Shown here piece after piece: positions 18,815-58,759 of a stretch of 64,000 nt of DNA. Position numbers and translations under genes: made by a program. Numbering within the stretch: position 1 is the stretch's first letter; the number at the start of each line of letters is the position of its first letter. Origin of the DNA: Lotus japonicus. Taxonomy: Eukaryota > Streptophyta > Magnoliopsida > Fabales > Fabaceae. The stretch is taken from assembly GCF_012489685.1 (NCBI RefSeq), contig NC_080046.1, positions 25,364,223-25,428,222 on the forward strand, written 5' to 3'. The notes under the pieces were generated by a model. That model did not search any database. It saw nothing but the letters and a program-made list of their open reading frames with translations, and was not told the origin of the DNA.

Positions 18815-18863
18815 CGTTGGAGAGAAAGGTAAGCTTCACACCTCGAATAATATTCAGAAAAAA

Positions 18864-20044: not shown

Positions 20045-20131
20045 CGATTGAATGCAACGTGGTTAGCCAAACAACGAATCGCCCTTACCACGAAAGTGTC
20101 TAGCGCACAACCCAATCTCAAACAACCCAAT

Positions 20132-26597: not shown

Positions 26598-26791
26598 CCT
26601 ATATCTCATCAAACGTCCGATTAGTACTAGCCATACGGTAGCACTAGACAAACCACTCAATCCGATTAAGTAGTAACGCAAACACTTAGAGCGAAAATCG
26701 CTCTGCAGACAATCAATTTTTACTCTTTGCAGAGTCACACAACCTAGCACAGAAGACCTATTCCCCAAAGACTCCCGAAAGACTCGACTAA

Positions 26792-26803
26792 GCTCTGATA
26801 CCA
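26792..26803 (-). promoter_or_regulatory. Primer binding site of element N
   Basis: Minus strand TGGTATCAGAGC, complementary to the 3' end of initiator-Met tRNA, three bases after the end of the 5' LTR. Confidence 0.9.
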
Positions 26804-27745: not shown

Positions 27746-28219
27746 GTGACGCGTTCCCGTTCGCCACAAGTGAAGCATTTTCACTATGGATGGACCATTC
27801 CCGTTATCCATCCTGGATGAAATCCATCCTGGATGAACCATTCCCGTTATTCATCCTTGGTGAACCATTCCCGTTATTCACCGAATGATGAACCATTCCC
27901 GTTATTCATCATTAATGCAAGGTGAACCATTCCCGTTATTCACCATGATATGCACAGGTGAACCATTCCCGTTATTCACCCGATTGAATGCAACGTGGTT
28001 AGCCAAACAACGAATCGCCCTTACCACGAAAGTGTCTAGCGCACAACCCAATCTCAAACAACCCAATGAGTTAGTGTCGGTCAATACAACACAACTCGGA
28101 GTAAGTGTCGGTCAATACAACACAACTCCATCCACAGAATACACAAGGGTCTAGTGTCGGTCAATACAACACAGCCCAAACAACAAGAGCACCAGGTGTC
28201 GGTCAATACAACACGGCTC
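27746..28219 (-). repeat. Hairpin arrays 1 and 2 in the N 5' LTR
   Basis: Same units as at 19,810-20,283: constant CCATTCCCGTTA loops with paired arms, then GTGTCGGTCAATACAACAC cores with paired outer arms. In the sense RNA of N the arrays lie beyond the TATA-like box, in the 3' part of the LTR toward the primer site, so they could be part of the 5' leader. Confidence 0.85.
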
Positions 28220-29684: not shown

Positions 29685-29692
29685 TATTTATA
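29685..29692 (-). promoter_or_regulatory. TATA-like box in the N 5' LTR
   Basis: Minus-strand TATAAATA in the context CGCCTATAAATAGCGCG. It is the best core-promoter candidate in the LTR. The same site in the 3' LTR is 21,749-21,756. Confidence 0.5.
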
Positions 29693-30384
29693 GGCGGGTG
29701 AAATCGCGGGAAAATGAAAATTTCGCGATTCCGATTTTTGCAGCACGATCACCGAGAAATTCTAAGAGAGATTCTGGCGTCGGAATTCCAGAACTCAAAA
29801 CAAATATCTAGGATTTGGGAAAAACGATATCGAAAAACTCAAAAGCGGTGTCGGTTAATCTGCCCCGAAAAACTACTTTTTGCTGTGATGCTCAAACGAC
29901 AAAACTTCCAACTGAAGAAAGATTGGAAACGTCGAAACAAGTCTGGCAACGCGGACGGAATCTTCGTTAGAAGTCCCGAATAGAAAAAGTATTCATCCAT
30001 TGCTCGAAAATAGGGTTTCGAAGCAAAGAAATTAGCGTCGGCGGACATCCGAAAAGTGAAACCTATCGTGCGTACAGTCCAGAGTTCCGAAATGAAACGC
30101 TGGTCGATGGAAAAATAAAAAGAATCTTTAAATTTTCCGAGAGTTCGAAATCTCACTCAAAACGTTGCTTTAAGAGCGAAATAGCCTATTCTGGACACGC
30201 TTGCCATAAGGCAGGTGTGCAGACGACTCGCACTAACTCCGAAAACAGCTACGCAACATTCCTCAAGCAATTCCTGAACTTTCTTCTTCATTAATCTTTC
30301 TCAAATGTCAAACTCCTGTCACGCTTACACTATTTCTACGTGTGAGTCGGAAACTTAACTTGTTCTGAAAATCCAGGTCTTACA

Positions 30385-30775
30385 GGCATCATACAGAATG
30401 GCATTAGAAGAGCTCAGAAGGAAGGCGTTTGAGGAAGATATGTTCCTCAATATTAGGCATCCCGATGGTACAAAGACCATACAAGAGCTGACGAAGACAC
30501 TGCTTGAAGAAGATCTTGGTCCAGAGATGGAGAAAGATCTGAAGGAGTTCCTCTGCTTCGTGGAAGAGATTCAGGAGCTTTGCCAGCGGGAGCTGAATCT
30601 GCTGGAAGAGAAGGAGACTGTGGAAAAGAGACTTAAGACGACAGAAGATAGTCTAGAAAAAGATGATCTAAGCATCAAACTTGGCAACATAGAGTATGCA
30701 TTGGATCGTCTGGAGAAGGAAAGAGTGGAGCAGCGCCAAGAATGCAGAAGAATGAGGAAGGATCCTCCATTCTAG
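30385..30775 (+). pseudogene. Antisense small coiled-coil protein of Sirevirus A, body
   Basis: Downstream part of the gene split by N. From the target duplicate GGCAT it reads SYRMALEELRRKAFEED and runs to the stop at 30,775. A second ATG (30,398) would still give 125 residues if transcribed from elsewhere. Including the two codons left before N, the product would be 130 residues, the same as B. Conserved blocks are FLNIRHP, FLCFVEEIQELC and the C-terminal RQECRRMRKDPPF, with a charged heptad-like helix between. AATAAA is at 30,832-30,837. The frame stays open after the split, which fits a recent insertion. Function unknown. Confidence 0.65.
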
Positions 30776-30990
30776 ATATAGGGAATAATGTATGATGGAA
30801 AGAGTTATGATGTAAACATAGAACAATTATGAATAAAACAGGTTTTGCAAACATATGTGCCACAAATATATATAGATATATGCATATAGAATCACAAATG
30901 AACAAATTAAAGTAAGTAAATAAGCAGAGTTTAAATAAAACAACGTTAAATAAAAAAGAAAAGGAAGAAAAAGAAGAGATCCTAAAAAAA

Positions 30991-33840: not shown

Positions 33841-34283
33841 TTTGAAGAGGTTGAAGGTTTGAGGTAGAAGATGAAGTTTGAAGGATGAGGAGAGATCGAG
33901 AGAGAAATCACGAAGGAGGCGGTTTTGAAAAGCAGGGAGTGCGAGAGTGAAAACCGGAAGTGAGAGAGAACGTGTGTGTATAGTGGGTTTTATCAAATAA
34001 CCGTTGTTGATTCAAAAAGCACTTTAAGATCAACGGTTGAAAATTAAAGATAGACAGTAACAGTAAAATACACAATCACACACATGAGATAAGCATATCT
34101 ACACGCAATCACAACAGACTGTCACACGGGCACAAGGAACTATGCATCAGAAATTCTGACGCACGTGTTGTTGTCTCAGCTTCAGAGTCAGTACCAGTGG
34201 GCACACACACTCTGATTGAGTTACCTTCTGGACTAGACATCTTCTGATCAAGAAGTATCATAGTCAGAGGTTCTGATCTATCT
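33841..34283 (-). promoter_or_regulatory. Pol/env spacer of Sirevirus A with promoter-like block
   Basis: No frame links pol to the env-like gene: they differ in frame and lie 443 nt apart. In the spacer, AACCGTTG (33,999-34,006) and CAACGGTT (34,031-34,038) form an inverted pair containing the MYB-type core AACGG. A TATAC box on the minus strand (33,978-33,982) lies 142 nt before the env ATG and is followed by CT-rich leader. The same block is present in B. An internal promoter or spliced message is inferred. Confidence 0.4.
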
Positions 34284-37200
34284 TCACTCTGGACAAAAGT
34301 CCATGTTTAGATTTTTCAGAATAAAATTAAATCTATCTTCAGCTAAGGGCTTTGTAAAGATATCTGCCCATTGATGGTCAGTATCAACAAACTTCAGAAG
34401 AAGTACGCCCTTCTGCACATAATCTCTAATGAAGTGATACTTTACCTCAATGTGCTTTGCCCTTGAATGCAAGATAGGATTCTTGCTCAACGAAATTGCA
34501 GCAGTGTTATCACAGTAGATTGGGATATTGCTCTCAAGGATCTGATAATCCTCCAGCTGATGTTTCATCCAGAGCATCTGAGTGCTGCATATTGCTGCTG
34601 AGATATATTCTGCCTCTGCAGTTGATAGAGCAATGGTTGATTGCCTCTTGCTTGCCCATGAGACTAGATTGCTTCCCAGAAATTGACAATTTCCAGAAGT
34701 ACTTTTTCTCTCTGTTCTATCTCCAGCATAATCAGCATCACAATAACCTGAAAGCTTATACTCTGATGTTTTCTTATACATCAAGCCAAGGTTAGTGGTG
34801 CCTTTCAGATACCTTAGGATCCTCTTAACAGCAGTTAAGTGGGTTTCCCTTGGATCTGATTGGAAACGAGCACATAAATGAACACTAAATAATATGTCTG
34901 GCCTAGATGCAGTTAAGTATAGAAGTGAACCTATCATGCCACGATAGAGCTTCTGACATACTTTACCACTTATATCTTCTTTTTCCAGAATGCATGTTGG
35001 ATGCATTGGGGTCTTGGCCACTGTAGATTCCAGCATATTGAACTTCTTCAGAAGTTCCTTAGCGTACTTGCTCTGATGGATATACGTTCCTTCTGGTGTT
35101 TGATCAACTTGTATTCCCAGAAAGTACTTTAATTCTCCCATCATACTCATCTCAAATTCAGCCTGCATCATCTCAGAAAATTCTTTGCATAGAGATTGAT
35201 TAGCAGAACCAAATATAATATCATCAACATAAATTTGCACAATTAAGATATCATCTTTATAAGTCTTGCAAAAGAGAGTTGTATCTACTTTACCCCTTAC
35301 AAACTCATTCTCCAGAAGGAATGAGCTAAGTCTCTCATACCATGCTCTGGGAGCTTGCTTCAGACCGTAGAGTGATTTCTTCAATTTGAACACATGGTCT
35401 GGTTTCTTTTCATCTTCAAAACCTGGGGGTTGATGAACATAGACTTCCTCTGAGATATAACCATTTAGGAAGGCACTCTTTACGTCCATCTGATGTAGAA
35501 CTATGTTGTGATTTACTGAGAAAGAAATCAATAGTCTGATTGCCTCCAGTCTTGCTACTGGAGCAAATGTTTCAGTGTAGTCTATTCCTTCCTGCTGGCT
35601 GTAGCCTTGAGCAACTAGCCTTGCCTTGTTTCTGACTACATCTCCTTTCTCATTTAGCTTGTTTCTGAATACCCATTTCGTTCCAATAACATGGACATTC
35701 TCAGGCTTCTTCACTAAGCTCCAAACATCGTTCTTGGAGAATTGATTCAATTCTTCTTCCATGGCCAGAATCCAATCCTTGTCCTGAAGAGCTTCATCTA
35801 TGGACTTGGGTTCAATTAAGGACACCAATCCTTTCAGACTCAGCAAGGTCTCTTCAGAGGGTCTGAAGGCAGATCTGGTTCTGACTGGTTCATCTTTGTT
35901 GCCCAGAATCAATTCCTTAGGATGAGCTGCAGTGATTCTGCTCTTCTTCAGAGTTTGTGAGTTAGAGGGACCAGCTTCTTCCTCTGGTTCATCTTCCTCT
36001 GGCTCAACTTCCTCTGGAGCTTTGCCTTTGTCAGAAACATTAATGCTTAAATCTGCAAACTTTTCAACTAGCTTTGACTGGTCAGAGTCAAGCTTATCAT
36101 CAAATCTAACATGAATAGATTCTTCAATAGTCTTAGCATCAGTATTATAAAATCTAAAACCTTTAGATCTATCAGAATAACCAAGTAATAGACACTTAGA
36201 AGATTTAGCATCAAATTTATGCAATCTATCCTTAGTATTGAGAACATAACAAACACAGCCAAAAGGATGAAAATAAGAAATGTTGGGTTTTATGTTCTTC
36301 CACAATTCATAAGGAGTCTTATTCAGAATTGGTCTCACAGAGATTCTGTTCTGAATGTAACATGCTGTATTTACTGCCTCTGCCCAAAAGTGCTTAGCCA
36401 TGCCAGTTTCTTGGAGCATGGTTCTAGCCATCTCCTGAAGAGTTCTGTTCTTCCTCTCAACAACACCATTTTGTTGAGGAGTTCTGGGACAAGAGAAATC
36501 ATGTGTAATTCCATAGGAATCAAACAGACTCTCAAACTTGTCATTCTCAAACTCTCCACCATGGTCACTTCTGACACGCACAATTCTACAAGCCTTCTCG
36601 TTTTGCACTTGAGCAATGAAGGTAGAGAACACAGCATGAGACTCATCCTTGCGGGTTAGAAACTTTACCCATGTCCAGCGGCTATAGTCATCAACGATAA
36701 CCATCCCATATCTCTTGCCACCTATAGACTCAGTTTTCACTGGTCCAAACAGGTCGATATGCAGAAGTTCTAACGGCCTTGAGGTTGAGACAACATTCTT
36801 TGCCTTGAAAGGGACTTTTGTGAATTTGCCTTTCTGACATGCTTCACAAAGAGCGTCTGAAGCGAACTTCAGATTGGGTAAGCCCCTGACAAGGTTTAGC
36901 TTGCTCAGCTGAGAAATCTTTCTCATACTGGCATGCCCTAACCGTCTATGCCATACCCACTGCTCTTCATTAACAGACAGAAGGCACTTCACATTCTGAG
37001 CCTCCAACTCAGATAATCTGATCTTATAAATGTTGTTCTTCCTCTTGCTGTTAAACAGAACAGAGCCATCGATCTGACTTACAGCCCGGCAGGACTTTTG
37101 ATTGAATATAACATCATAACCCTTGTCAGCTAATTGACTTATAGACAATAAGTTATGTGTTAAGCCGTCTACCAATAAAACATTATCAATGCATGGACTA

Positions 37201-37388
37201 CTATCTACACAAATAGTACCAGTACCAATAATTTTACCCTTTTCATTTCCTCCAAAGCCAACTTCGCCTCCAGGCTTAAGTTTCAGCTCTCGGAACATAC
37301 GCTTTTCTCCCGTCATGTGACGCGAGCATCCACTGTCCAGATACCATGATTGGTGTTTCAGTGGAGCTATCAAGGATATCTGCAACAT
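34284..37388 (-). CDS. pol: Pol polyprotein of Sirevirus A, intact
   Basis: 1,034 residues. Aspartic protease DSG at 18-20 ([14 protein letters not shown]). Pre-integrase zinc motif at 147-184 ([15 protein letters not shown]). Integrase core with D212, D275 and E311, exactly D,D-35-E spacing. RT from about 540 with [31 protein letters not shown] and active site YVDD at 720-723. RNase H from about 860 with [27 protein letters not shown] and FTKPL near the end. All catalytic residues are present. The order PR-IN-RT-RH is Ty1/copia. The frame is +1 relative to gag and overlaps it by 113 nt, so a +1 frameshift or other bypass is needed. Confidence 0.95.
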
Positions 37389-39186
37389 AGATAATCTTGT
37401 CCTTAGGTACCCACTTTCTGGGTCCTCTTTTGTTAGTTACCCCAAAGGTTCTGATCACCTTGGGTGTCTCAACATGATATTTTAAAGGAATATTTGCATG
37501 ATATTTAGTCATAGAGAAAGATCCCTTTTTAAGAGGGTTTTTAGCAACTTCAGCAGGTACAGGATCAGGCAATATGGTACCAGAGGGAACAAAGCATTCA
37601 TACAAGGATTTAGCTTTAGACACAGAAGGCTCATTTCTAATTGGTTTAGAATAGCCAATGCCATGCATTCCATTTCTGCTTACACCATAGATCATTGAAG
37701 CCATTAAGCTTCTATCTACGCTTTTAGCCAGGAATCTTTGAAAAGATTTTTCATACTTAGATTCATGCTTACTATCAGAGGCATCGCAGGCAATAACTTC
37801 TTCTAACTTTGCAATTTGATTCTTAAGCACAGAGTTAGAATTAACTAAAGCATGGTTATCATTTTTCAAATCAGATATGATTTTCTCATGTTCAGAAGGA
37901 GTTTTAGAACCAGCAGATAAGTTCTTTTTCAGCTTCTTATGCTTAGACAACAAGGAGTTATACTTATCCATGATATCAGACAAAGCATGTTTCAGTTCAG
38001 AGGTAGAGAAGGAAGCAAATACCTCATTTTCATCGTCAGAGTCTGGATCTCCTTCTGATTCTGAGTCAGAGTCAACAGCTTCCTTTGACTCTGTTCCTTT
38101 GCCTTTGACAATAGCCATGAGTCCTTGGACTTCACCATCAGAGTCAACATCCTCTGACTCTGATTCATCGAATGTCACCATCAGACTCTTCTTGGTCTTG
38201 AAGTGCTTCTTTGGCTTCTTGTCCTTCTTCAATTTTGGACAGTCACTTTTGTAATGCCCTGATTCTTTGCACTCAAAGCAAGTGACTTCCTTGATTGATG
38301 ACTTCTTCTGACCTGAGGATTCAGACTTTCCTCTTGCCTTTCCAGAGCCTTTGAACTTGCTCTGCCTGTGCTTCCAGATGCGGTTGAGTCTCTTGGAGAT
38401 CAGAGTCAGCTCATCTTCATCAGAGTCTTCTGATGCTTCTTCAGATTCTTCTTCTTCAGCTTGAAGAGCCTTTGACTTCTCAACCTTAGCCTTTTCAGAT
38501 TTGGATTTCAAGGCTATGGACTTTTTCCTCAGATCTTGCATCTCTGAGCGCTTCAGCTCATGGCATTTCAAAATGCTGATGAGTTCTTCTAAACTCATAT
38601 TCTCAACATCTCTCGTGAGCTCTATTGAAGTCACCAAAGGCATCCAACTTTCAGGAAGACACCTGATGACCCTTATGACGTGATCTTTTGTTGTGTAGCT
38701 CTTGTTGAGAGGACGTATGCCAGCTACAAGCAGTTGAAATCTGGAGAACATTTCTTCAATGGACTCATTTGGCTCCATGATGAAGGATTCATACTTTTGG
38801 ATCAAAGACAATGCCTTTGATTCTTTGACTTTCTTGTTTCCTTCATGAGACATCTTCAGAGAATCAAAAATGCCTTTAGCAAACTCACGATCTGTAATCT
38901 TCTGGTACTCCTCATAGGAGATAGCACTTAGAAGAATTGCTCTAGCTTTATGATGTTGTGAGTACAGCTTCTTTTGATCTGCAGACATCTCTGACCTTGG
39001 GATCTTTTTGCCATCTGCATCAACTGGACGCTCATAGCCATCCACAATAATATCCCAGAGATCTGCATCGAAACCCAGAAAGAAACTTTCCAGTCTATCT
39101 TTCCAATATTCGAACCTTTGACCATCGAACATAGGAGGCTTTGCGTTGTAACCATCTCTTTGAGTTTCACTGGTGGTGGCAGCCAT
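37276..39186 (-). CDS. gag: Gag of Sirevirus A, intact
   Basis: 636 residues from [12 protein letters not shown], 70 bp downstream of the 5' LTR. A copia-type gag domain (about 15-215: [36 protein letters not shown]) forms the capsid. A CCHC zinc knuckle, [14 protein letters not shown], at 303-316 binds RNA. Then come acidic Asp/Ser/Glu stretches (335-395) and a coiled-coil region (about 395-475). The C terminus ([18 protein letters not shown]) is encoded by the same bases that encode the protease DSG site in the other frame. It is longer than typical copia gag, as expected for Sireviruses. Confidence 0.93.
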
Positions 39187-39242
39187 TGTTTTTCACACCG
39201 GCCCGGATCACTGAACACTGTTAGGTGTGGTAATCAGAACTT

Positions 39243-39256
39243 GCGCTCTGATACCA
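39243..39256 (-). promoter_or_regulatory. Primer binding site of Sirevirus A
   Basis: Minus strand TGGTATCAGAGCGC, matching the initiator-Met tRNA 3' end, two bases from the 5' LTR. Confidence 0.9.
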
Positions 39257-39258
39257 AT

Positions 39259-40476
39259 TGAAGGTATGAAAAACGGTAGAAAGGGGGGGGTTTGAATAAC
39301 GTTTTCAGTACAAAACTACCACCTTAAAGATTTTAACAAATCTTTTCGAGAACTAAGTGCAAAAGATAGAGATAGAAAAGCACACAAGGATTTTATCCTG
39401 GTTCACTTGATAAATCACTCAAGCTACTCCAGTCCACCCGTTAAGGTGATTTCTTCCTTCTTAGAATGAAGGCAATCCACTAATCAGGTAAGAGTTACAA
39501 CTGCACTTGAAACCTACAAGTGACTAACAATTACACTGACTTAGCTCACACTAAGATTCACTCTCTTAGTCTTCTCTAGGATCCGATCAACCTTGATCTC
39601 CTAAAGGAAAATCAAACAACTGTTTGAGGTTGGTGTTTACAAGGGTTTGCTTCTGAATAAGCTGAGTGTAAACTAAAATAAATTACAAGATGAAAGAAAG
39701 CTTAGAATATATCTTGCGCGTGTGTATTGCTTCTTGTCTATTTTTTTTCTTCTAGCCGCTTCTTTCAATCTTCAGCCTCTATATATACTCCAAGGATTAG
39801 GGTTGAGCGTTGCATGGGAAATGCTACCGTTGGAGGGCAGTTCTGGAAAATCCAGCTTCTGCTGTGGCTGAGAACGTTAGGTAGGTCGTCAGGAAGGTAC
39901 ACTTGCTTTTGTACTTGGATAGCGACTTGACCTTTTAACCTAGGAGACTTCTGATCAGAGGAATGCTTCGTATTGGAACTTGTGAAGCCGGTTGATCAGA
40001 GTCAGAGGGATAGCACAGATCCTCTGACCATTGTATCTTCTGATTCTGAACTCAGAGGGAAGAACATGGCCTTCAGAGTTTCTTGCTTCTGGACTTCAGA
40101 GTTTCCACTATTCAGCTTCTGGATCTTCAGAGTCTTCTACACCATCGGAACATCTGAACCTTCAGTGTTTCTTGGTTGTCAGAACTTCTGGATCATCAGA
40201 GCTTCTAGCGACTGAGTCCTCATCAGAGTTTGTATAGCTTCAGATCTTCTGAAGCTTTTCCACTGTTCATACTGAACATGGTGAATGCGAAAGCGTTGCT
40301 TGGGTTACCCTTTATACACAGTGCTTCTGATTTGTGTGAAATTGAGTCAGGGTCAGAGCCTGTAAATAGCACACTCAGAAAAACACGTTAGAGTACCACA
40401 ATTGTTCATATCAAAAGGTTAACTTGTAATCATCAAAACATAGAGTTGTACTACTAGATCAAAACTTGATCTTACA
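39259..40476 (-). repeat. 5' LTR of Sirevirus A
   Basis: 1,218 bp, no difference found from the 3' LTR. A minus-strand TATA-like box (TATATATA, 39,780-39,787, context GGAGTATATATAGAGG) should drive the genomic RNA. CATAG follows at 40,477. Confidence 0.93.
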
Positions 40477-46678: not shown

Positions 46679-47886
46679 TGTAAGATCAAGTTTTGATCTA
46701 GTAGTACAACTCTATGTTTTGATGATTACAAGTTAACCTTTTGATATGAACAATTGTGGTACTCTAACGTGTTTTTCTGAGTGTACTATTTGCAGGCTCT
46801 GACCTCAACTCAATCTCACACAAATCAGAAGCACTGTGTATAAAGAGCAACCCAAGCAACGCTTTCGCATTCACCATGTTCAGTATGAACAGTGGAAAAG
46901 CTTCAGAAGTTCTGAAGTTATACAAACTCTGATGTGGACTCAGTCACTAGAAGCTCTGAAGATCCAGAAGTTCTGATAACCAAGAAACACTGAAGGTTCA
47001 GATGTTCTGATGGTGTAGAAGACTCTGAAGTTGCAGAAGCTGAATAGTGGAAACTCTGAAGTCCAGAAGCAAGAAACTCTGAAGGCCATGTTCTTCCCTC
47101 TGAGTTCAGAATCAGAAGATACAATGGTCAGAGGATCTGTGCTTTCCCTCTGACTCTGATCAACCGGCTTCACAAGTTCCAATATGAAGCATTCCCCTGA
47201 TCAGAAGTCTCCTAGGTTTAAAGGTCGCGTCGCTATCCAAGTACAAAAGCAACTGTACCCTCCTGACGACCTACCTAACAGTCTCAGACACAGCAGAAGC
47301 TGGATTTTCCAGAACTGCCCTCCAACGGTAGCATTTCTCATGCAACGCTCAACCCTAATCCTTGGAGTATAAATAGAGGCTGAAGATTGAAAGAAGCGGC
47401 TAGAAGAATTCACATACGCGCAAGACAATCTTAAATTCTTCTAAGTTTTCTTTCATCTGAAATTCATTGAGTTTACTATTAGCTTTTTAGAAGCAAATCT
47501 CTTGTAAACAATTCTTTGATAAACAGTTTGTTTAGTTCCTTTAGGAGATCAAGGCTGATCGGATCCTAGAGAAGACTAAGAGAGTGAATCTTAGTGTGAG
47601 CTAAGTCAGTGTAATTGTTAGTCACTTGTAGGTTTCAAGTGCAGTTGTAACTCTTACCTGATTAGTGGATTGCCTTCATTCTAAGAAGGAAGAAATCACC
47701 TTAACGGGTGGACTGGAGTAGCTTGAGTGATTTATCAAGTGAACCAGGATAAAATCCTTGTGTGCTTTTCTATCTCTTATCCTTAGCACTTAAGTTCTCG
47801 AAAGATTTGTCAAAATCTTTAAGGTGGAAGTTTTATACTGAAAACGTTATTCAAACCCCCCCTTTCTACCGTTTTTCATACCTTCA
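46679..47886 (+). repeat. 5' LTR of Sirevirus B
   Basis: TGTAAGATCAAG to CATACCTTCA. A TATA-like TATAAATA at 47,368-47,375 (GGAGTATAAATAGAGG) is the likely core promoter. Confidence 0.95.
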
Positions 47887-47888
47887 AT

Positions 47889-47902
47889 TGGTATCAGAGC
47901 GC
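47889..47902 (+). promoter_or_regulatory. Primer binding site of Sirevirus B
   Basis: TGGTATCAGAGCGC, identical to A, two bases after the LTR. Confidence 0.92.
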
Positions 47903-47958
47903 AAGTTCTGATTACCACACCTAACAGTGTTCAGTGATCCGGGCCGGTGTGAAAAACA

Positions 47959-49869
47959 ATGGCTGCCACCACCAGTGAAACTCAAAGAGATGGTTACAAT
48001 GCAAAGCCTCCTATGTTCGACGGTCAAAGGTTCGAATATTGGAAAGATAGACTGGAAAGTTTCTTTCTGGGTTTCGATGCAGATCTCTGGGATATCATTG
48101 TGGATGGCTACGAGCGTCCAGTTGATGCAGATGGGAAGAAGATCCCAAGGTCAGAGATGACTGCAGATCAAAAGAAGCTGTACTCACAACATCACAAAGC
48201 AAGAGCAATTCTTCTAAGTGCTATTTCCTATGAAGAGTACCAGAAGATTACAGATCGTGAGTTTGCGAAAGGCATTTTCGAATCTCTGAAGATGTCTCAT
48301 GAAGGAAACAAGAAAGTTAAAGAATCAAAGGCATTGTCTTTGATCCAAAAGTATGAATCCTTCATCATGGAGCCAAATGAGTCCATTGAAGAAATGTTCT
48401 CCAGATTTCAGCTGCTTGTAGCTGGCATACGACCTCTCAACAAGAGCTACACAACAAAAGATCATGTCATAAGGGTCATCAGGTGTCTTCCTGAAAGTTG
48501 GATGCCTTTAGTGACTTCAATAGAGCTCACGAGAGACGTTGAGAATATGAGTTTAGAAGAACTCATCAGCATTTTGAAATGCCATGAGCTGAAGCGCTCA
48601 GAGATGCAAGATCTGAGGAAAAAGTCCATAGCCTTGAAATCCAAATCTGAAAAGGCTAAGGTTGAGAAGTCAAAAGCTCTTCAAGCTGAAGAAGAGGAAT
48701 CTGAAGAAGCATCAGAAGATTCTGATGAAGATGAGCTGACTCTGATCTCCAAGAGACTCAATCGCATCTGGAAGCACAGGCAGAGCAAGTACAAAGGCTC
48801 TGGAAAGGCAAAAGGAAAGTCTGAATCCTCAGGTCAGAAGAAGTCCTCACTTAAGGAAGTCACATGCTTTGAGTGCAAAGAATCAGGGCACTACAAAAGT
48901 GACTGTCCAAGATTGAAGAAGGACAAGAAGCCAAAGAAGCACTTCAAGACAAAGAAGAGTCTGATGGTGACATTTGATGAATCAGAGTCAGAGGATGTTG
49001 ACTCTGATGGTGAAGTCCAAGGACTCATGGCCATTGTCAAAGACAAGGAAGCAGAGTCAAAGGGAGCTGTTGACTCTGACTCAGAATCAGAAGGAGATCC
49101 TAACTCAGACGATGAAAATGAGGTATTCGCTTCTTTCTCTACCTCTGAACTGAAACATGCTTTGTCTGATATCATGGATAAGTATAACTCTTTATTGTCT
49201 AAGCATAAGAAGCTGAAAAAGAACTTATCTGATGTTTCCAAGACTCCTTCTGAACATGAGAAAATTATTTCTGATCTGAAAAATGATAATCATGCCTTGA
49301 TCAATTCTAACTCTGTGCTTAAGAACCAAATTGCTAAGTTAGAAGAAATTGTTGCCTGTGATGCCTCTGATTGTAGAAATGAATCTAAGTATGAAAAGTC
49401 TTTTCAAAGATTCCTAGCTAAAAGCGTGGATAGAAGCTTAATGGCTTCAATGATCTATGGCGTAAGCAGAAATGGAATGCATGGCATTGGCTATTCTAAA
49501 CCAATTAGAAATGAGCCCTCTGTGTCTAAAGCTAAATCCTTGTATGAATGCTTTGTTCCCTCTAGTACCATATTGCCTGATCCTGTACCTGCTAAAGTTG
49601 CTAAAAACCCTCTTAAAAAGGGATCCTTCTCTATGACTAAATATCATGCAAATATTCCTTTAAAATATCATGTTGAGACACCCAAGGTGATCAGAACCTC
49701 TGGGGTAACTAACAAGAAAGGACCCAGAAAGTGGGTACCTAAGGACAAGATTATCTATGTTGCAGATATCCTTGATAGCTCCACTGAAACACCAATCATG
49801 GTATCTGGACAGTGGATGCTCGCGTCACATGACGGGAGAAAGGCGTATGTTCCGAGAGCTGAAACTTAA
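47959..49869 (+). CDS. gag: Gag of Sirevirus B, intact
   Basis: 636 residues, the same length as gag of A and nearly identical: copia gag domain, knuckle [14 protein letters not shown] at 303-316, acidic Asp/Ser/Glu tracts, coiled-coil part, and C terminus [18 protein letters not shown] overlapping pol. The differences from A are scattered conservative changes, mostly in the acidic linker. It is open even though pol is broken, so B could still supply capsid. Confidence 0.94.
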
Positions 49870-52861
49870 GCCTGGAGGCGAAGTTGGCTTTGGAGGAAAT
49901 GAAAAGGGTAAAATTGTTGGTACTGGTACTATTTGTGTAGATAGTAGTCCATGCATTGATAATGTGTTATTGGTAGACGGCTTAACACATAACTTATTGT
50001 CTATAAGTCAATTAGCTGACAAGGGTTATGATGTTATATTCAATCAAAAGTCCTGCCGGGCTGTAAGTCAGATCGATGGCTCTGTTCTGTTTAACAGCAA
50101 GAGGAAGAACAACATTTATAAGATCAGATTATCTGAGTTGGAGGCTCAGAATGTGAAGTGCCTTCTGTCTGTTAATGAAGAGCAGTGGGTATGGCATAGA
50201 CTGTTAGGGCATGCCAGTATGAGAAAGATTTCTCAGCTGAGCAAGCTAAACTTTGTCAGGGGCTTACCCAATCTGAAGTTCGCTTCAGACGCTCTTTGTG
50301 AAGCATGTCAGAAAGGCAAATTCACAAAAGTCCCTTTCAAGGCAAAGAATGTTGTCTCAACCTCAAGGTCGTTAGAACTTCTGCATATCGACCTTTTTGG
50401 ACCAGTGAAAACTGAGTCTATAGGTGGCAAGAGATATGGGATGGTTATCGTTGATGACTATAGCCGCTGGACATGGGTAAAGTTTCTAACCCGCAAGGAT
50501 GAGTCTCATGCTGTGTTCTCTACCTTCATTGCTCAAGTGCAAAACGAGAAGGCTTGTAGGATTGTGCGTGTCAGAAGTGACCATGGTGGAGAGTTTGAGA
50601 ATGACAAGTTTGAGAGTTTGTTTGATTCCTATGGAATTGCACATGATTTCTCTTGTCCCAGAACTCCTCAACAAAACGGTGTTGTTGAGAGGAAGAACAG
50701 AACTCTTCAGGAGATGGCTAGAACCATGCTCCAAGAAACTGGCATGGCTAAGCACTTTTGGGCAGAGGCAGTAAATACAGCATGTTACATTCAGAACAGA
50801 ATCTCTGTGAGACCAATTCTGAATAAGACTCCTTATGAATTGTGGAAGAACATAAAACCCAACATTTCTTATTTTCATCCTTTTGGCTGTGTTTGTTATG
50901 TTCTCAATACTAAGGATAGATTGCATAAATTTGATGCTAAGTCTTCTAAGTGTCTATTACTCGGTTATTCTGAGAGATCTAAAGGTTTTAGATTTTATAA
51001 TACTGATGCTAAGACTATTGAAGAATCTATTCATGTTAGATTTGACGATAAGCTTGACTCTGACCAGTCAAAGCTAGTTGAAAAGTTTGCAGATTTAAGC
51101 ATTAATGTTTCTGACAAAGGCAAAGCTCCAGAGGAAGCTGAGCCAGAGGAAGATGAACCAGAGGAAGAAGCTGGTCCCTCTAACTCACAAACTCTGAAGA
51201 AGAGCAGAATCACTGCAGCTCACCCTAAGGAATTGATTCTGGGCAACAAAGACGAACCAGTCAGAACCAGATCTGCCTTCAGACCCTCTGAAGAGACCTT
51301 GCTCAGTCTGAAAGGATTGGTGTCCTTAATTGAACCCAAGTCCATAGATGAAGCTCTTCAGGACAAGGATTGGATTCTGGCCATGGAAGAAGAATTGAAT
51401 CAATTTTCCAAGAACGATGTTTGGAGCTTAGTGAAGAAGCCCGAGAGTGTCCATGTTATTGGAACAAAATGGGTATTCAGAAACAAGCTGAATGAGAAAG
51501 GAGATGTAGTCAGAAACAAGGCAAGGCTAGTTGCTCAAGGCTACAGCCAGCAGGAAGGAATAGACTACGCTGAAACATTTGCTCCAGTAGCAAGACTGGA
51601 GGCAATCAGACTGTTGATCTCTTTCTCAGTAAATCACAACATAGTTCTACATCAGATGGACGTGAAGAGTGCCTTCCTAAATGGTTATATCTCAGAGGAA
51701 GTCTATGTTCATCAACCCCCAGGTTTTGAAGATGAGAAGAAACCAGACCATGTGTTCAAATTGAAGAAATCACTCTACGGTCTTAAGCAAGCTCCCAGAG
51801 CATGGTATGAGAGACTTAGCTCATTCCTTCTAGAGAATGAGTTTGTAAGGGGTAAAGTAGATACAACTCTTTTTTGCAAGACTTATAAAGATGATATCTT
51901 AATTGTGCAAATTTATGTTGATGATATTATATTTGGTTCTGCTAATCAATCTCTATGCAAAGAATTTTCTGAGATGATGTAGGCTGAATTTGAGATGAGT
52001 ATGATGGGAGAATTAAAGTACTTTCTGGGAATACAAGTTGATCAAACACCAGAAGGAACATATATCCATCAGAGCAAGTACACTAAAGAACTTCTGAAGA
52101 AGTTCAATATGCTGGAATCTACAGTGGCCAAGACTCCAATGCATCCTACATGCATTCTGGAGAAAGAAGATAAAAGTGGTAAAGTATGTCAGAAGCTCTA
52201 TCGTGGCATGATAGGTTCACTTCTATACTTAACTGCATCTAGGCCAGACATACTATTTAGTGTTCATTTATGTGCTCGTTTCCAATCAGATCCAAGGGAA
52301 ACTCACTTAACTGCTGTTAAGAGGATCCTAAGGTATCTGAAAGGCACCACTAACCTTGGCTTGATGTATAAGAAAACATCAGAGTATAAGCTTTCAGGTT
52401 ACTGTGATGCTGATTATGCTGGAGATAGAACAGAGAGAAAAAGTACTTCTGGAAATTGTCAATTTCTGGGAAGCAATCTAGTCTCATGGGCAAGCAAGAG
52501 GCAATCAACCATTGCACTATCAACTGCAGAGGCAGAATATATCTCAGCAGCAATATGCAGCACTCAGATGCTCTGGATGAAACATCAGCTGGAGGATTAT
52601 CAGATCCTTGAGAGCAATATCCCAATCTACTGTGATAACACTGCTGCAATCTCATTGAGTAAGAATCTTATCCTGCATTCAAGGGCAAAGCACATTGAGG
52701 TAAAGTATCACTTTATTAGAGATTATGTACAGAAGGGCGTACTTCTTCTGAAGTTTGTTGATACTGACCATCAATGGGCAGATATCTTTACAAAGCCCTT
52801 AGCAGAGGATAGATTTAATTTTATTCTGAAAAATCTAAACATGGACTTTTGTCCAGAGTGA
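49757..52861 (+). pseudogene. pol: Pol of Sirevirus B, one nonsense codon in RT
   Basis: Same length as pol of A (3,105 nt) with the same motifs: DSG protease, [15 protein letters not shown] (one His-region change, R to L), D,D-35-E integrase, RT with YVDD at 720-723, complete RNase H. Codon 742, CAG in A, is TAG here (51,980-51,982), just after the RT palm. The frame is otherwise open to 52,861. It overlaps gag by 113 nt in the +1 frame, as in A. Without readthrough the product lacks the RT thumb and RNase H. Confidence 0.92.
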
Positions 52862-53294
52862 AGATGGATCAGAACCTCTGACTATGATACTTCTTGATCA
52901 GAAGATGTCTAGTCCAGAAGGTAACTCAATCAGAGTGTGTGTACCCACTGGTACTGACTCTGAAGCTGAGACAACAATACGTGTGTCAGTATTTCTGATG
53001 CATAGTTCCTTGTGCCCGTGTGACAGTCTGTTATGATTGCGTGTAGATATGCTTCTCTCCTGTGTGTGATTTGTGTATTTTACTGTTACTATCTATCTTT
53101 AATTTTCAACCGTTGATCTTAAAGTGCTTTTTGAATCAACAACGGTTATTTGCCAAAACCCATTATACACACACGATCTCTTTCACTTCCGGTTTTTACT
53201 CTCGCTCTCTCTGCTTTTTCGAAACCGCTTCTCCTCGATCTCTCTTCATCTTTCAACCTTCATCTTCTACCTTAAACCTTCAACCGCTTCAAAA
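52862..53294 (+). promoter_or_regulatory. Pol/env spacer of Sirevirus B with promoter-like block
   Basis: AACCGTTG (53,108-53,115) and CAACGGTT (53,140-53,147) are inverted MYB-core-like sites. TATAC at 53,164-53,168 lies 131 nt before the env ATG, followed by CT-rich leader (ACTCTCGCTCTCTCTGC). The arrangement equals that in A. The 433-nt gap and different frame rule out simple readthrough from pol. Confidence 0.4.
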
Positions 53295-56156
53295 ATGGTG
53301 CGTCAAACCAGAAGAGCTACTGCAGATGCACCCCAGTTCCCTCACATGGTAGTTGGTCTAGCAACGGGTCAAAGGGGCCCTGAGAATCCGACACAAGATC
53401 AAGGTCAAGCTCAAGAGCAGATTGTTCCAATTGCAGAACGGGGCTGTGCCGTTCACTGCGTATATGCTCCTGAGGAACTCCAAGTCCTGGCAGAATGGAG
53501 ATTCGACCTCGACAACCTGGCTACAAATGGGTATGATCTTCGTCCTGAAGTCCAAGTTCAAGGTTGGGCAAATTACTTCAACAGACTTCGAGGACCGGTG
53601 TATGATAGATTGGTCAAGGAATTCTGGAAGCACGCCGACTGCGATGATACTCAGGTGGTATCTCACATTCTCGGAAGAAAGATCATCATCACAGAGAAGT
53701 CTTTCATGAATTTGCTGGGTGCAGACACCGCTTTTGGGTATCGTTTCCAACTCACGGAATCGAAGCTGAAACCCAGCACCAAGGATACAATCAACCAGGC
53801 CCTGTACACCAATTACAAACCGGGCAAGACGAATTACAAGGTGATGGACCTTCATCCCAAGCTCAGGATCTGGCACAAAATTTTGCTCCACTGCATAAAC
53901 TAGAGACCAAAGGGCAGTTCTCCAGACTACATCAACTTCAACCAGAAGGTGATGTTGTTCTTCATTCAAGACCAGAAGAAGATCTGCCTTCCCTACTTCC
54001 TGTTCTCCTACTTGAAGGAATGTATCCGGAAGTCTCGTACCTCTGCCTCCATCAAGTCAGCAATCAAGTATATCCCCTTTGGAAGGCTGCTCTCAGACTT
54101 TCTCATTGAAAGCAACTTGGTGCAAGATCTGGTCCATGCTGGATGTGTAGAGGATCTGACCACCATTGTCAGTGATGTCTTCACTGCAAATTCTCTGAAG
54201 AAGATGGGTTTGGTCCAGAAGAAAATCGCCCCTGCTCGTGAAGACACATCGTCTGAAATCAGAAGTAGAAGGATGCCTCTGACTGACTATCCTCTGTGGA
54301 CACAGGCAGACAATCCTGACGCCATCAGGTGCTATGTTAAAGACCTAAGGGCTCAAGGATTCGAAATTGATCTTGATGATTTCGTCAGCAAACTGCCGCC
54401 AGCTCCAGAGTTTCCTTCTCCTCCCAAGAAGAAAGCTCAGAGGAAGATGATCCTAGAAGAATCTTCTGAGGAATCAGATGTTCCTCTGATCAAAAAGAAG
54501 AAGAGAAAGCCTGATGATGGTGATGATAGTGATAATGAGGATGGTCCTCCTAAGAAGAAGAAGAAGAAGCAGGTCAGAATCGTGGTGAAGCCTACTCGGG
54601 TGGAACCAGCTGCTGAAGTGATCAGAAGGACTGAACCTCCTGCCAGAGTGACTAGATCATCAGCACATTCAAGTAAGCCTGCACTTGCTTCTGATGATGA
54701 TTTGAATTTATTTGATGCACTCCCTATATCTGCCATGCTCAAACTCTCCTCAAATCCCCTCACTCCTATTCCTGAATCCCAACCAGCTGCCCAAACCACC
54801 TCTCCACCACATTCCCCAAGATCTTCATTCTTTCAACCTTCCCCTACTGAAGCACCTCTCTGGAATTTGCTTCAGAACCAACCCTCTAGGTCAGAAGAAC
54901 CAACCTCTCCCCTTACCATTCAGTACAACCCATTATCCTCTGAACCCATCATCCATGAACAACCAGAGCCCAACCCAACAGAACCACAACCCAGAACGTC
55001 TGATCACTCTGTTCCCAGAGCATCAGCACGTCCTGCTGCCAGAACCACGGATACAGACTCTTCCACAGCCTTTACCCCTGTATCCTTCCCAACCAATGTT
55101 GCTGATTCTTCTCCCTCCAATAACTCTGAATCCATTAGAAAATTCATGGAGGTCAGAAAAGAAAAGGTGTCTACCTTAGAAGAGTATTACCTCACTTGTC
55201 CAAGCCCTAGGAGATATCCTGGCCCTAGACCTGAACGTCTAGTTGACCCAGATGAACCTATCTTGGCCAATCCTTTACAAGAGGCAGACCCTTTGGCTCA
55301 ACAAGCTCACCCTGCCCCTGACCAACAAGAGCCTATTCAACCAGAACCTGAACCCGAACAATCAGTGTCTAACCAATCCTCGGTTAGATCACCCCATCCT
55401 CTGGTTGAAACTTCAGAACCTCACCTTGGAACCTCTGAACCCAATGCTCAAACGTTTAACATTGGCTCTCCACAAGGTGCCTCTGAAGCCCACAGCAGCA
55501 ATCACCCAGCCTCTCATGAAACCAACCTCTCCATAATCCCTTACACTCACCTCCGACCCACATCTCTCTCTGAGTGCATCAATACTTTCTATCATGAAGC
55601 TTCTTTGATGCTACGCAATGTGCACGGTCAGACTGACCTCAGTGAGAATGCTGAACGTGTGGCTGATGAGTGGAACAATCTGGGCACTTGGCTAGTGGCT
55701 CAAGTTCCAATTATGATGCAGCTCCTGCATGCAGAGGGAAGTCAGAGCATTGAGGCTGCAAAGCAAAGGTTTGCTCGAAGGGTGGCTCTTCATGAACAAG
55801 AACAGAGACATAAGCTTCTTGAAGCTATTGAAGAAGCCAAGAGAAAGAAAGCTCAAGCAGAAGAAGCTGCACGTCAAGCAGCAGCTCAAGCTGAACAAGC
55901 CCGATTAGAGGCAGAACGACTTGAAGCTGAGGCTGAAGCTCTTAGATGCCAAGCACTGGCACCAGGAGTGTTTTCTCCTGCTGCTTCTGCTTCCATTCCA
56001 GATCCTCAAGCTGCTCAGAATGTTCCTTCCGGTTCTGCTCAGTCCAGCTCATCCAGACTCGACATCATGGAACAGCGTCTTGACATTCATGAATCCATGC
56101 TAATTGAGATGAAGCACATGATGATGGAACTTCTGCGACGAACTGATAAATCTTAG
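53295..56156 (+). pseudogene. Env-like protein of Sirevirus B, one nonsense codon
   Basis: Starts MVRQTRRATADAPQFPHM, as in A. Frame open to HCIN, then TAG at 53,901-53,903 where A has Gln, then open again to 56,156. Domains as in A: N-terminal globular part (CDDTQVVSHILG, KYIPFGRLLSDFLIESN), basic clusters (KKKKRK, PPKKKKKK), Pro/Ser/Thr-rich middle, and a C-terminal Glu/Ala coiled coil. Reinitiation at an internal Met (53,949) is conceivable. The entry function of such proteins in plants is unproven. Confidence 0.85.
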
Positions 56157-56355
56157 TTTTAGGATCTCTTCGTTTTTCTTTTTCATTAACGTTGTCTTAT
56201 TTTTTTGTTAAACTCTGTTTCTGTTTATTTACTTATTCTACTTTGTTCGTTTGTGATTATCTATGCATATATATATATTTGTGTCACATATGTTTGCAAA
56301 ATCTTTTTATTCATCATATCTTTGTGTTTACATCATACATTCCTTCCCTAAAAGT
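56157..56355. other. Short gap between convergent genes in B
   Basis: The sense env-like gene and the antisense ORF end facing each other. An AATAAA for the antisense transcript is at 56,306-56,311 (minus strand). TA-rich, with a TATATATAT run near 56,269. Confidence 0.5.
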
Positions 56356-56748
56356 CTAGAATGGAGGATCCCTCCTCATTCTTCTGCACTCCTGGCGCTG
56401 CTCTGACCTATCCTTCTCCAGACGCTCCAGTGCATACTGGATGTTGCTGAGCCTGTTCTTTAGCTCATCCCTCTCCAGAATCTCTTCTGCAGTCTTGAGC
56501 TTCTCTTCCAAACTCTCTTTTTCTTCCAGCAGCTTGAGTTCAAGCCGGCTGAGTTCTTGCACCTCCTCCACGAAGGCAAGAAATTCCCTCAGGTCTCTCC
56601 TCAACTCAGGACGCAGGTCCTCTTCCAGCAGTGTCCGTGTCAGCTCATCGATGGTCGTTGTACCCTCTGGATGCCTGATGTTCAGGAACAAGTCCTCCTC
56701 AAAGGCCTTCTTCCTCAGCTCTTCTAGTGCTACGATGTATGATGCCAT
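56356..56748 (-). CDS. Antisense small coiled-coil protein of Sirevirus B, intact
   Basis: 130 residues from MASYIVALEELRKKAFEED. The ATG at 56,748 is preferred over the upstream in-frame Met because A begins at the same place and the TATA-like box fits. It aligns gap-free with the A copy: FLNIRHPEG, LTRTLLEEDL, FLAFVEEVQEL, an amphipathic Leu/Glu/Lys helix (about 60-115) and C-terminal RQECRRMRRDPPF. Many changes from A are conservative (Lys/Arg, Glu/Asp, Leu/Met), suggesting purifying selection. It is oriented against the retroelement RNA, convergent with env-like. No known domain is recognised. Regulator, RNA-binding or silencing-suppressor roles are guesses only. Confidence 0.7.
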   Translation of the reverse strand: MASYIVALEELRKKAFEEDLFLNIRHPEGTTTIDELTRTLLEEDLRPELRRDLREFLAFVEEVQELSRLELKLLEEKESLEEKLKTAEEILERDELKNRLSNIQYALERLEKDRSEQRQECRRMRRDPPF

Positions 56749-56802
56749 TTTTCTTTTCCTACAAATTGTTCGAAGTGTGAAGATTACCTTTCTCTCCAAC
56801 GC

Positions 56803-56912
56803 TTTATATAGGCTTCACTTTCTCTCTGAAAGTTAATGCTCCTACGGTTTCTCGAGGTTAAGTTCTTGGTAACTGACCCTTCTCTTTACTCACTTGACCG
56901 GTGGTAAACGTT
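56803..56912 (-). promoter_or_regulatory. Putative promoter of the antisense ORF, copy B
   Basis: Minus-strand TATATAAA (56,803-56,810) lies 62 nt before the ATG. AGCATTAACTTTC lies upstream, and AACGTTTACCACCGGTCAA is at 56,894-56,912. This is the intact version of the module seen in A and C. Confidence 0.55.
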
Positions 56913-57551
56913 CTTCTCTTGCATTAACTCTTCTATTTATTTCTCCTAACTCTGATTCTTGCATCGTTTTCATCTTCTTTAAACTTAGACCTTCTCTAAG
57001 GGGGAGTACCTTGTACTTCAAGCTAAGTTTTTCACACCCCAAGCTTTTTGCTTATGACAAAAAGGGGGAGTAAACCCAGTTTTTGATGTGTAAGATGTGT
57101 TAGTGTGATTTATTTTTCTTTTGGAGAATTTAAGAGTTCCACCTTCATGACCATAGATGTGTCACTGGGCAAATACAATGAATACATTTCACTTCTTCTG
57201 AAGTGATTCTAAGTTGACTCTGATACCCAAGACTCTGATACCTTGTCCATGACTCTGATTACTTATGAGCTCTGATTACTCGATTTTCATCTATGTCATA
57301 AGTTTTTCACTCTGAACTCTTATATCATTTAGCTCAGAATCTAGACTTTACTAACGTTTTCATCAAGTATTAGATTCAGGGGGAGCTAAGCTCAGAATCA
57401 AGCAGTGACTTGAATTCAGAATGAGCAAGATAAACTATTCACATCAGGATAAGTATTATTCTATATCTCTAAACTCTGAGTGAATTCAGTTTAATGTTTA
57501 AGAATTGTTCATCAAAAATCTTAGTTTTGTCATCATCAAAAAGGGGGAGAT
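56913..57551 (+). other. 3' non-coding region of Sirevirus B with four polypurine tracts
   Basis: GGGGGAG tracts at 56,998-57,006, 57,059-57,070, 57,378-57,385 and 57,538-57,550, the last directly before the 3' LTR. No coding frame. Confidence 0.8.
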
Positions 57552-58759
57552 TGTAAGATCAAGTTTTGATCTAGTAGTACAACTCTATGTTTTGATGATT
57601 ACAAGTTAACCTTTTGATATGAACAATTGTGGTACTCTAACGTGTTTTTCTGAGTGTACTATTTGCAGGCTCTGACCTCAACTCAATCTCACACAAATCA
57701 GAAGCACTGTGTATAAAGAGCAACCCAAGCAACGCTTTCGCATTCACCATGTTCAGTATGAACAGTGGAAAAGCTTCAGAAGTTCTGAAGTTATACAAAC
57801 TCTGATGTGGACTCAGTCACTAGAAGCTCTGAAGATCCAGAAGTTCTGATAACCAAGAAACACTGAAGGTTCAGATGTTCTGATGGTGTAGAAGACTCTG
57901 AAGTTGCAGAAGCTGAATAGTGGAAACTCTGAAGTCCAGAAGCAAGAAACTCTGAAGGCCATGTTCTTCCCTCTGAGTTCAGAATCAGACGATACAATGG
58001 TCAGAGGATCTGTGCTTTCCCTCTGACTCTGATCAACCGGCTTCACAAGTTCCAATATGAAGCATTCCCCTGATCAGAAGTCTCCTAGGTTTAAAGGTCG
58101 CGTCGCTATCCAAGTACAAAAGCAATTGTACCCTCCTGACGACCTACCTAACAGTCTCAGACACAGCAGAAGCTGGATTTTCCAGAACTGCCCTCCAACG
58201 GTAGCATTTCTCATGCAACGCTCAACCCTAATCCTTGGAGTATAAATAGAGGCTGAAGATTGAAAGAAGCGGCTAGAAGCATTCACATACGCGCAAGACA
58301 ATCTTAAATTCTTCTAAGTTTTCTTTCATCTGAAATTCATTGAGTTTACTATTAGCTTTTTAGAAGCAAATCTCTTGTAAACAATTCTTTGATAAACAGT
58401 TTGTTTAGTTCCTTTAGGAGATCAAGGCTGATCGGATCCTAGAGAAGACTAAGAGAGTGAATCTTAGTGTGAGCTAAGTCAGTGTAATTGTTAGTCACTT
58501 GTAGGTTTCAAGTGCAGTTGTAACTCTTACCTAATTAGTGGATTGCCTTCATTCTAAGAAGGAAGAAATCACCTTAACGGGTGGACTGGAGTAGCTTGAG
58601 TGATTTATCAAGTGAACCAGGATAAAATCCTTGTGTGCTTTTCTATCTCTTATCCTTAGCACTTAAGTTCTCGAAAGATTTGTCAAAATCTTTAAGGTGG
58701 AAGTTTTATACTGAAAACGTTATTCAAACCCCCCCTTTCTACCGTTTTTCATACCTTCA
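57552..58759 (+). repeat. 3' LTR of Sirevirus B
   Basis: 1,208 bp. The substitutions against the 5' LTR that I saw are CAGAAGATAC/CAGACGATAC, CAACTGTACC/CAATTGTACC, AGAATTCACA/AGCATTCACA and ACCTGATTAG/ACCTAATTAG. Confidence 0.95.

What the first reader, a model, noticed from the sequence alone, without database searches (positions are those of the whole stretch)
56356..56912. A conserved antisense gene in all three Sireviruses
Seen: copies A, B and C each have a 129-130 codon frame on the strand opposite to the element, at the same place between the env-like gene and 3' LTR. It starts with an ALEELRRKAFEED-type sequence, ends with RQ(E)CRR(M/L)R(K/R)(N/D)PPF, and shows no length change, although C is from a diverged subfamily. 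Known: extra ORFs, some antisense, are reported in plant LTR retrotransposons, mostly Tat-lineage Ty3/gypsy. I do not know a description of this one. Inference: a genuine element gene for a small coiled-coil protein, maybe regulating or protecting the element.
Basis: partly seen in the sequence, partly recalled or inferred. Interest (0 to 1): 0.88.

Follow-up and report, generated by a model that had tools for sequence, protein, structure and literature searches.

The report
Hidden antisense gene in plant retrotransposons
A large family of jumping elements in this plant genome carries a small, conserved gene written backwards near its end, with its own predicted start and stop signals, and natural selection has kept its protein although its job is unknown.

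Summary
All three SIRE/Maximus-type copia elements in the window carry a homologous 129-130 codon frame on the opposite strand, between the env-like gene and the 3' LTR; in copy A a nested 11.5-kb element splits it after the start codon.

It looks like a gene, not chance. ML dN/dS is 0.20 (A, B, C) and 0.305 (26 copies). Each window copy has a TATA box and initiator before the ATG (3 hits, 0.01 expected) and AATAAA after the stop. No sense-strand frame is conserved across families.

The window's own genome has 3,132 copies of the element's 3'-end motif. Of 30 fetched by that motif alone, 29 carry the frame and 25 have it uninterrupted.

New here: the ORF behaves as an exchangeable cassette. 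A-type and B-type proteins are 71% identical, and 36 of 38 fixed differences across about 1.95 kb lie inside the ORF.

I found no description in the open-access papers searched; the antisense ORFs reported there are in Ty3/gypsy elements. The acidic, predicted helical-hairpin protein matches no known family. A trans-acting accessory role is my inference. Transcription, translation and other plants were not testable.

The parts
56356..56748 (-). Antisense gene of copy B, 130 codons plus stop (ATG 56746-56748, stop 56356-56358)
56776..56810 (-). Predicted core promoter of the B gene: TATATAA, 21 nt, CTTCACA (initiator-like)
   Evidence: 3 matches in the window, one per gene; 0.01 expected
56894..56909 (-). 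Upstream motif GTTTACCACCGGTCAA, shared by the three antisense promoters
   Evidence: only these 3 places in 64 kb at up to 2 mismatches; 0.03 expected
56306..56311 (-). AATAAA, possible poly(A) signal, 47 nt after the first base of the stop codon
   Evidence: L009; position read
30385..30775 (+). Antisense gene of copy A, part beyond the nested insertion (codons 2-130 plus stop; longest ORF in place 30398-30775)
18864..18866 (+). Start codon of the copy A gene, separated from the rest
18871..30384 (.). LTR element nested in the copy A gene (TG...CA ends, TSD GGCAT)
18807..18840 (+). Predicted TATA-initiator of the copy A gene
18708..18723 (+). GTTTACCACCGGTCAA motif, copy A
30832..30837 (+). 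AATAAA after the copy A gene
   Evidence: position read
12766..13155 (+). Antisense gene of copy C, 129 codons plus stop
12703..12737 (+). Predicted TATA-initiator of the copy C gene
12604..12619 (+). GTTTACCACCGGCCAA motif, copy C
13182..13187 (+). AATAAA after the copy C gene
   Evidence: L001; position read
46679..58759 (+). Element B; LTRs 46679-47886 and 57552-58759 (4 differences in 1208), TSD TGTTA
16848..40476 (-). Element A with its nested insert; LTRs 39259-40476 and 16848-18065 (1218 of 1218 identical), TSD CATAG
10749..15655 (-). Element C as far as seen: env-like stretch to 3' LTR; no gag or pol match found for it in the window
53949..56156 (+). env-like ORF of B (735 aa), opposite strand to the antisense gene

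Best explanation
A protein-coding accessory gene of a SIRE/Maximus-type Ty1/copia family. Shown by sequence: position, strand, conserved frame, conserved promoter-like and poly(A)-like signals, purifying selection, presence in nearly all sampled 3' ends, and ORF types that do not follow the history of their flanks. Inferred: a short antisense mRNA starts at the initiator about 30 nt before the ATG, independently of the LTR promoter, ends before the env-like stop, and yields an acidic protein of about 15.7 kDa, a helical hairpin with a basic tail, that oligomerises. Most likely function (inferred): it acts in trans on the element's own cycle, as a regulator or anti-silencing factor bound to its partner through the coiled coil.
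For: dN/dS 0.156 for A-B (bootstrap 0.077-0.276). ML omega 0.20 for A, B, C; likelihood ratio against omega 1 = 58.8. 26 copies: omega 0.305, likelihood ratio 191. Median pairwise omega falls from 0.62 at dS below 0.1 to 0.18 at dS 1-3, and in the motif-chosen sample from 0.63 to 0.27, as expected for selection on active lineages and drift after insertion. TATA-initiator: 3 hits in the window against 0.01 expected; 52 of 58 loci and 27 of 29 motif-chosen copies. Motif-chosen sample: frame in 29 of 30, uninterrupted in 25 of 30, env-like gene on the opposite strand in 29 of 29. GC3 0.51-0.65 against 0.40-0.45 in gag, pol and env. Fold: helices 47-86 and 90-126, mean pLDDT above 90 for residues 71-110.
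Against: No RNA or protein evidence was available. Only one plant genome could be searched, so age beyond it is unknown. The fold model rests on three sequences and has no significant structural relative. The regulatory step has no direct evidence; nuclear localisation was not tested. In the motif-chosen sample 4 of 30 frames are broken and 1 of 30 is absent, which fits old copies but does not show necessity. One sense frame is open throughout the B family (30 of 30).
Confidence: 0.7

Rival explanations
1. The antisense transcript, not a protein, is the functional product: it pairs with the genomic RNA and feeds or blocks silencing.
For: The predicted transcript would lie wholly inside the sense genomic RNA (layout). 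Antisense transcripts are said to be frequent in LTR elements and repress Ty1 (PMC12786077, passages); dsRNA is discussed for plant antisense ORFs (PMC7264820).
Against: A pure RNA role predicts no codon-position bias and omega near 1; observed omega 0.16-0.31 and a third-position excess. The ORF is also the stretch where A and B types differ most.
Confidence: 0.08
2. A structural or assembly protein (partner of Gag or of the env-like protein) rather than a regulator.
For: Predicted helical hairpin; uniform length in most copies (54 of 58); purifying selection.
Against: A separate promoter on the other strand is an odd way to supply a structural protein (inference). No similarity to the env-like protein (best E 0.58), though partners need not be alike.
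Confidence: 0.2
3. Chance frame, or a by-product of constraint on the sense strand.
For: A 131-codon sense ORF overlaps it in B, and that frame is open in 30 of 30 B-family loci.
Against: No sense frame is open in 28 C-family loci, and the one open in B has a stop in A. The antisense frame is open in 56 of 59 copies; that set is biased to intact frames, but the motif-chosen set gives 25 of 30.
Confidence: 0.02
4. A host gene captured recently, with no role for the element.
For: Higher GC3 than the element's other genes.
Against: Shared by subfamilies whose LTRs are 77-80% identical and present in 29 of 30 motif-chosen 3' ends; low omega among element copies. No copy outside an element was seen in the 58 + 30 loci, but only the best 150 candidates per search were scored, so a host relative is not excluded.
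Confidence: 0.05

Closest known systems
gene23 of maize Grande (Ty3/gypsy), as described in PMC7264820
   Same: Antisense gene between pol and 3' LTR with its own promoter (reported for Grande; only predicted here)
Retand antisense ORFs with the TRP28 domain (PF04195), PMC11963269
   Same: Antisense, between pol and 3' LTR, lineage-wide
   Different: No PF04195 match here; Ty1/copia element, with an env-like gene on the sense strand in the same region
ORF2 of common bean Ty3/gypsy families such as pvRetro13 (PMC4093653)
   Same: Antisense, in a legume; some contain an SMC domain (coiled-coil nature recalled)
   Different: 211-939 aa, Ty3/gypsy only; the two Ty1/copia families with an extra ORF in that paper were reported with env-like ORFs
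HTLV antisense gene HBZ (name and bZIP domain recalled; the antisense promoter inside the 3' LTR is stated in PMC7264820)
   Same: Layout: antisense gene between env and 3' LTR, helical protein
   Different: No homology shown; predicted promoter lies inside the element, not in the LTR; no bZIP match in Pfam

Membership tests
SIRE/Maximus lineage (Sirevirus), for the carrier element | Ty1/copia gag and pol | tested here: met
   PF14223 and PF07727 plus integrase domains in A; B pol stretch 98.6% identical to A. C: no gag or pol seen in the window
SIRE/Maximus lineage (Sirevirus), for the carrier element | env-like ORF after pol on the sense strand | tested here: met
   735 aa in B, relatives in A and C; opposite to the antisense gene in 56 of 58 loci (2 without a match) and 29 of 29
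SIRE/Maximus lineage (Sirevirus), for the carrier element | Several polypurine tracts before the 3' LTR (Bousios 2010, PMC2829016, passages) | tested here: met
   CTCCCCCTT found twice in 50 of 58 loci, once in 7, not at all in 1, in the 400 nt before the ATG; not aligned with published motifs
SIRE/Maximus lineage (Sirevirus), for the carrier element | Place in an RT phylogeny | not tested
[quoted passage not shown]
   29 of 30 motif-chosen copies; omega 0.305 on 26 copies
Retand TRP28 proteins | PF04195 domain | tested here: not met
   Pfam scan at E up to 1: PF04195 not listed, nothing reaches its cut-off
Grande gene23 | Sequence homology | not testable with these tools
   Protein database was switched off; no plant reference set
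HBZ-type antisense regulator | bZIP domain and 3' LTR promoter (bZIP recalled) | tested here: not met
   No bZIP match; predicted promoter at 56776-56810, outside the LTR

The most novel reading that the evidence does not exclude
The antisense gene is a specificity locus. It exists as old, ORF-limited allelic types (A and B types 71% identical, synonymous divergence near 1) that move as a cassette between elements sharing much of one backbone, and it is held polymorphic by selection, for example for self/non-self recognition between competing elements or for evading a host or rival factor.
Probability: 0.13. Interest if true: 0.87.

Novelty: new variant of a known kind. Interest (0 to 1): 0.68.

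Why it matters
In the literature seen here, antisense accessory genes of plant retrotransposons are described from Ty3/gypsy elements and have no known function. Here a Ty1/copia lineage has one with no recognised relative, conserved promoter-like signals, clear purifying selection and, by a motif count, up to about three thousand possible copies in one genome. A survey with a 250-codon cut-off (Neumann 2019, PMC6317226) could not have seen it. If it is expressed, it adds a product to the env-carrying Sireviruses and a small, tractable protein for asking what antisense genes do for retroelements. The cassette behaviour is a second, separately testable question.

Tried and rejected
Pfam: no family at its cut-off. 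PDB by sequence: best E 0.12, not significant. Foldseek: PDB best E 1.1, BFVD best E 0.23, none significant. No relative in viral contigs, prokaryote contigs or phages, as expected for a plant element. Common origin with the env-like protein: no support. A first idea that the hyperdiverged A/B tract ends at the transcript start was dropped: the limits are loose (start 56380-56449, end 56734-56803). A first reading means, that A and B types do not differ outside the ORF, was corrected: flanks differ too (Kst 0.41-0.44, p 0.0005-0.0185), but less than the ORF (Kst 0.77). Positive selection behind the A/B difference: fixed 18 syn: 18 nonsyn, polymorphic 93: 92, p = 1.0 (without L072, 26:23 and 66:77, p = 0.41). 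One env comparator (codons -260 to -131) was useless: 0 of 29 passed, because the match never covered the stretch. One search gave spacer identity 0.74 with one aligner; a gap-tolerant alignment gave 0.91 with 51 gap columns. In one search the 'identity 1.0' of A to L048 and L002 comes from short end overlaps and was ignored.

Full report
What is there. The window holds three elements with an env-like gene. B lies on the + strand, 46679-58759, its LTRs differing at 4 of 1208 sites, TSD TGTTA. A lies on the - strand, 16848-40476, its LTRs identical over 1218 bases, TSD CATAG. C is a partial element, about 10749-15655, with no gag or pol match in the window. A has copia-type gag, integrase and reverse transcriptase domains. 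Between the env-like gene and the 3' LTR each carries, on the opposite strand, a homologous frame of 129 or 130 codons. In A an 11,514-bp LTR element sits just after the start codon, with TSD GGCAT, so A's frame is not contiguous.

Gene anatomy. Each frame is preceded on its own strand by TATAWAA, 19-22 nt, CTTCACA. This pattern occurs three times in the 64 kb, once per gene, with 0.01 expected. Further upstream each has GTTTACCACCGGYCAA, found nowhere else in the window at up to 2 mismatches. AATAAA follows each stop. The start context in A and B is AAAAATGGC, close to the plant preference (recalled). GC at third positions is 0.51-0.65, against 0.40-0.45 in gag, pol and env.

Selection in the window copies. 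A-B: 129 codons, dS 1.03, dN 0.16, ratio 0.156, bootstrap 0.077-0.276; A-C and B-C ratios 0.19 and 0.32, with dS close to saturation. ML omega for A, B, C is 0.20; the likelihood ratio against omega 1 is 58.8. The sense strand does not explain this: each sense frame has stops in C, and the one sense frame open in B has a stop in A.

The genome. The window lies in a 553,688,102-base assembly of 65 contigs, six of them 68-137 Mb among those seen. Size and number fit Lotus japonicus; that is recall, no tool named it. Protein searches scored 150 of 4,364 (C query) and 150 of 4,511 (B query) first-look candidates, so counts are lower bounds. By my count of the rows, 109 of 150 and 147 of 150 have no stop. 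I examined 58 loci: the best 8 of the C query, the best 30 of the B query, and 20 that I chose from C-query rows listed without stops. This set is biased to intact frames. Of 58: ATG in 58; env-like gene on the opposite strand in 56, on the same strand in 0, not found in 2; TATA-initiator in 52; the upstream GTTTACCACCGG in 43; AATAAA within 150 nt of the stop in 54; frame ending exactly at codon 129 or 130 in 54. With A added, 56 of 59 frames count as free of stops; one of the other three, L048, is a frame two codons shorter rather than a premature stop. A sense frame is open in 30 of 30 B-family and 0 of 28 C-family loci. For 26 representatives omega is 0.305 and the likelihood ratio against 1 is 191. 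Median pairwise omega falls with divergence: 0.62, 0.30, 0.23, 0.19, 0.18.

A sample not chosen by the gene. A 35-base motif next to the polypurine tracts occurs 3,132 times in the genome at up to 3 mismatches; the reversed control pattern occurs 0 times. The first 30 listed places (all exact matches, all in the first 9.9 Mb of contig C1) were fetched. 29 carry the frame, each on the strand of the motif, 277-292 nt from the start of the motif to the first aligned codon, and all 29 have the env-like gene opposite; TATA-initiator in 27 of 29. The frame is uninterrupted in 25 of 30, broken in 4 and absent in 1. The last 130 codons of the env-like gene are uninterrupted in 27 of 29, so the antisense frame decays about like a known gene of the element. 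Pooled omega in this sample falls from 0.63 (dS below 0.05) to 0.27 (dS above 0.5). More places could not be fetched. Extrapolating 25 of 30 to 3,132 places would give some 2,600 uninterrupted frames, but the sample is small and from one chromosome end.

A cassette. Between A and B the antisense frame is far more diverged than anything around it: dS 1.03 against 0.31 (env-like), 0.16 (gag) and 0.05 (first 741 codons of pol). The tract with its own rate is best placed at 56425-56774, limits 56380-56449 and 56734-56803, so the last 20-odd codons are less affected. Yet distances to C are the same for the antisense protein (0.63-0.68) and the env-like protein (0.62-0.65); under those rates 17 differences are expected between A and B and 37 are seen, P = 3e-6. 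In the motif sample there are 6 A-type and 23 B-type genes. Of 38 fully fixed differences across about 1.95 kb, 36 lie in the ORF, between 56392 and 56735, 2 in the env-like gene and 0 in the 700 bases on the promoter side. With a looser rule (each type at least 80% uniform) about 70 of 99 fall in 56350-56749, 3 on the promoter side and 26 on the env side, 9 of these in the 50 bases just beyond the stop. The flanks also differ between types, but less (Kst 0.41-0.44 against 0.77 in the ORF). In the C family, the ORF tree joins L045, L049, L053 and L054 (support 100), whereas L054 groups with L039-L044, L050 and L052 on the env side (support 99) and the promoter side (support 89). Holding L045, L053 and L054 together is rejected on the env side (p-AU 1.2e-4) and the promoter side (1.3e-3) but not in the ORF (0.36); holding L039-L042 with L054 alone is rejected in all three trees, which in the flanks is because four more loci nest among them. 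These groups were named after seeing identities, so the p values are optimistic, and the trees were quick ones. The plain reading is recombination between co-packaged genomes that swaps ORF types. A McDonald-Kreitman type count gives no sign of positive selection.

The protein. 15.6-15.8 kDa, pI 4.8-5.6, last 20 residues basic. The three-sequence model (pLDDT 76.7, pTM 0.62) gives helices 2-17, 33-41, 47-86 and 90-126, the last two a hairpin. No significant structural or family match. In the tail, the C, the R after it, one P and the final F are invariant in 26 rows.

Mechanism. Shown: a conserved coding frame with conserved signals, under selection, in nearly all sampled 3' ends. Inferred: transcription from its own promoter, translation, oligomerisation, and action in trans on the element's cycle. 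I give about 0.93 to 'protein-coding element gene', 0.4 to 'regulator or anti-silencing factor', 0.2 to 'particle or assembly factor'.

Known or new. [quoted passage not shown] PvRetro13 is Ty3/gypsy, and the two copia families with an extra ORF in that study have env-like ORFs (PMC4093653, passages). Neumann 2019 (PMC6317226, passages) counted extra ORFs of at least 250 codons and reports sense 3' ORFs in 74% of SIRE elements. Bousios 2010 (PMC2829016), Bousios and Darzentas 2013 (PMC3599292) and MASiVEdb (PMC3414828) show 0 occurrences of 'antisense' in a term search. Retand 2025 (PMC11963269) and sunflower 2024 (PMC11728184), passages, concern extra ORFs of Ty3/gypsy elements. PMC3352295 and PMC4659654, passages, gave no antisense SIRE ORF. 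PMC3036077, passages, uses antisense for a knock-down construct. PMC12786077, passages, says that extra ORFs occur in most LTR lineages and antisense transcripts in many, without naming SIRE. Ten full-text searches listed no description of this gene; in several only the top 10-25 of 70-135 papers were listed, I saw titles and abstract starts, and subscription papers are mostly not held, so an earlier description is possible.

Noticed in passing
18871-30384: An 11.5-kb LTR element inserted into the start of copy A's antisense gene; a 300-base stretch at its left end recurs identically at 26804-27103, so it looks recent.
   Followed up: partly
56441-56836 (+): A 131-codon sense-strand ORF overlapping the antisense gene; a sense frame over the gene is open in 30 of 30 B-family loci and 0 of 28 C-family loci.
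   Followed up: partly
44355-62710: Element B may lie inside another LTR element (direct repeats at 44355 and 62411, 98%); a gag with PF03732 and zinc knuckles is at 60426-61613.
   Followed up: no
49757-52861: The pol stretch is one ORF in A (1034 aa) but at least two ORFs in B, although B's LTRs differ at only 4 sites.
   Followed up: no
L057, L058: Two C-family copies with antisense ORFs 96% alike but env side only 77% alike; L058 has a very long branch in the env tree, so foreign sequence or misalignment is possible.
   Followed up: partly
L082: A 3' end with the conserved motif and the same sequence just beyond it, but no antisense frame and no env-like match in the fetched 3 kb; cause not determined.
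   Followed up: no
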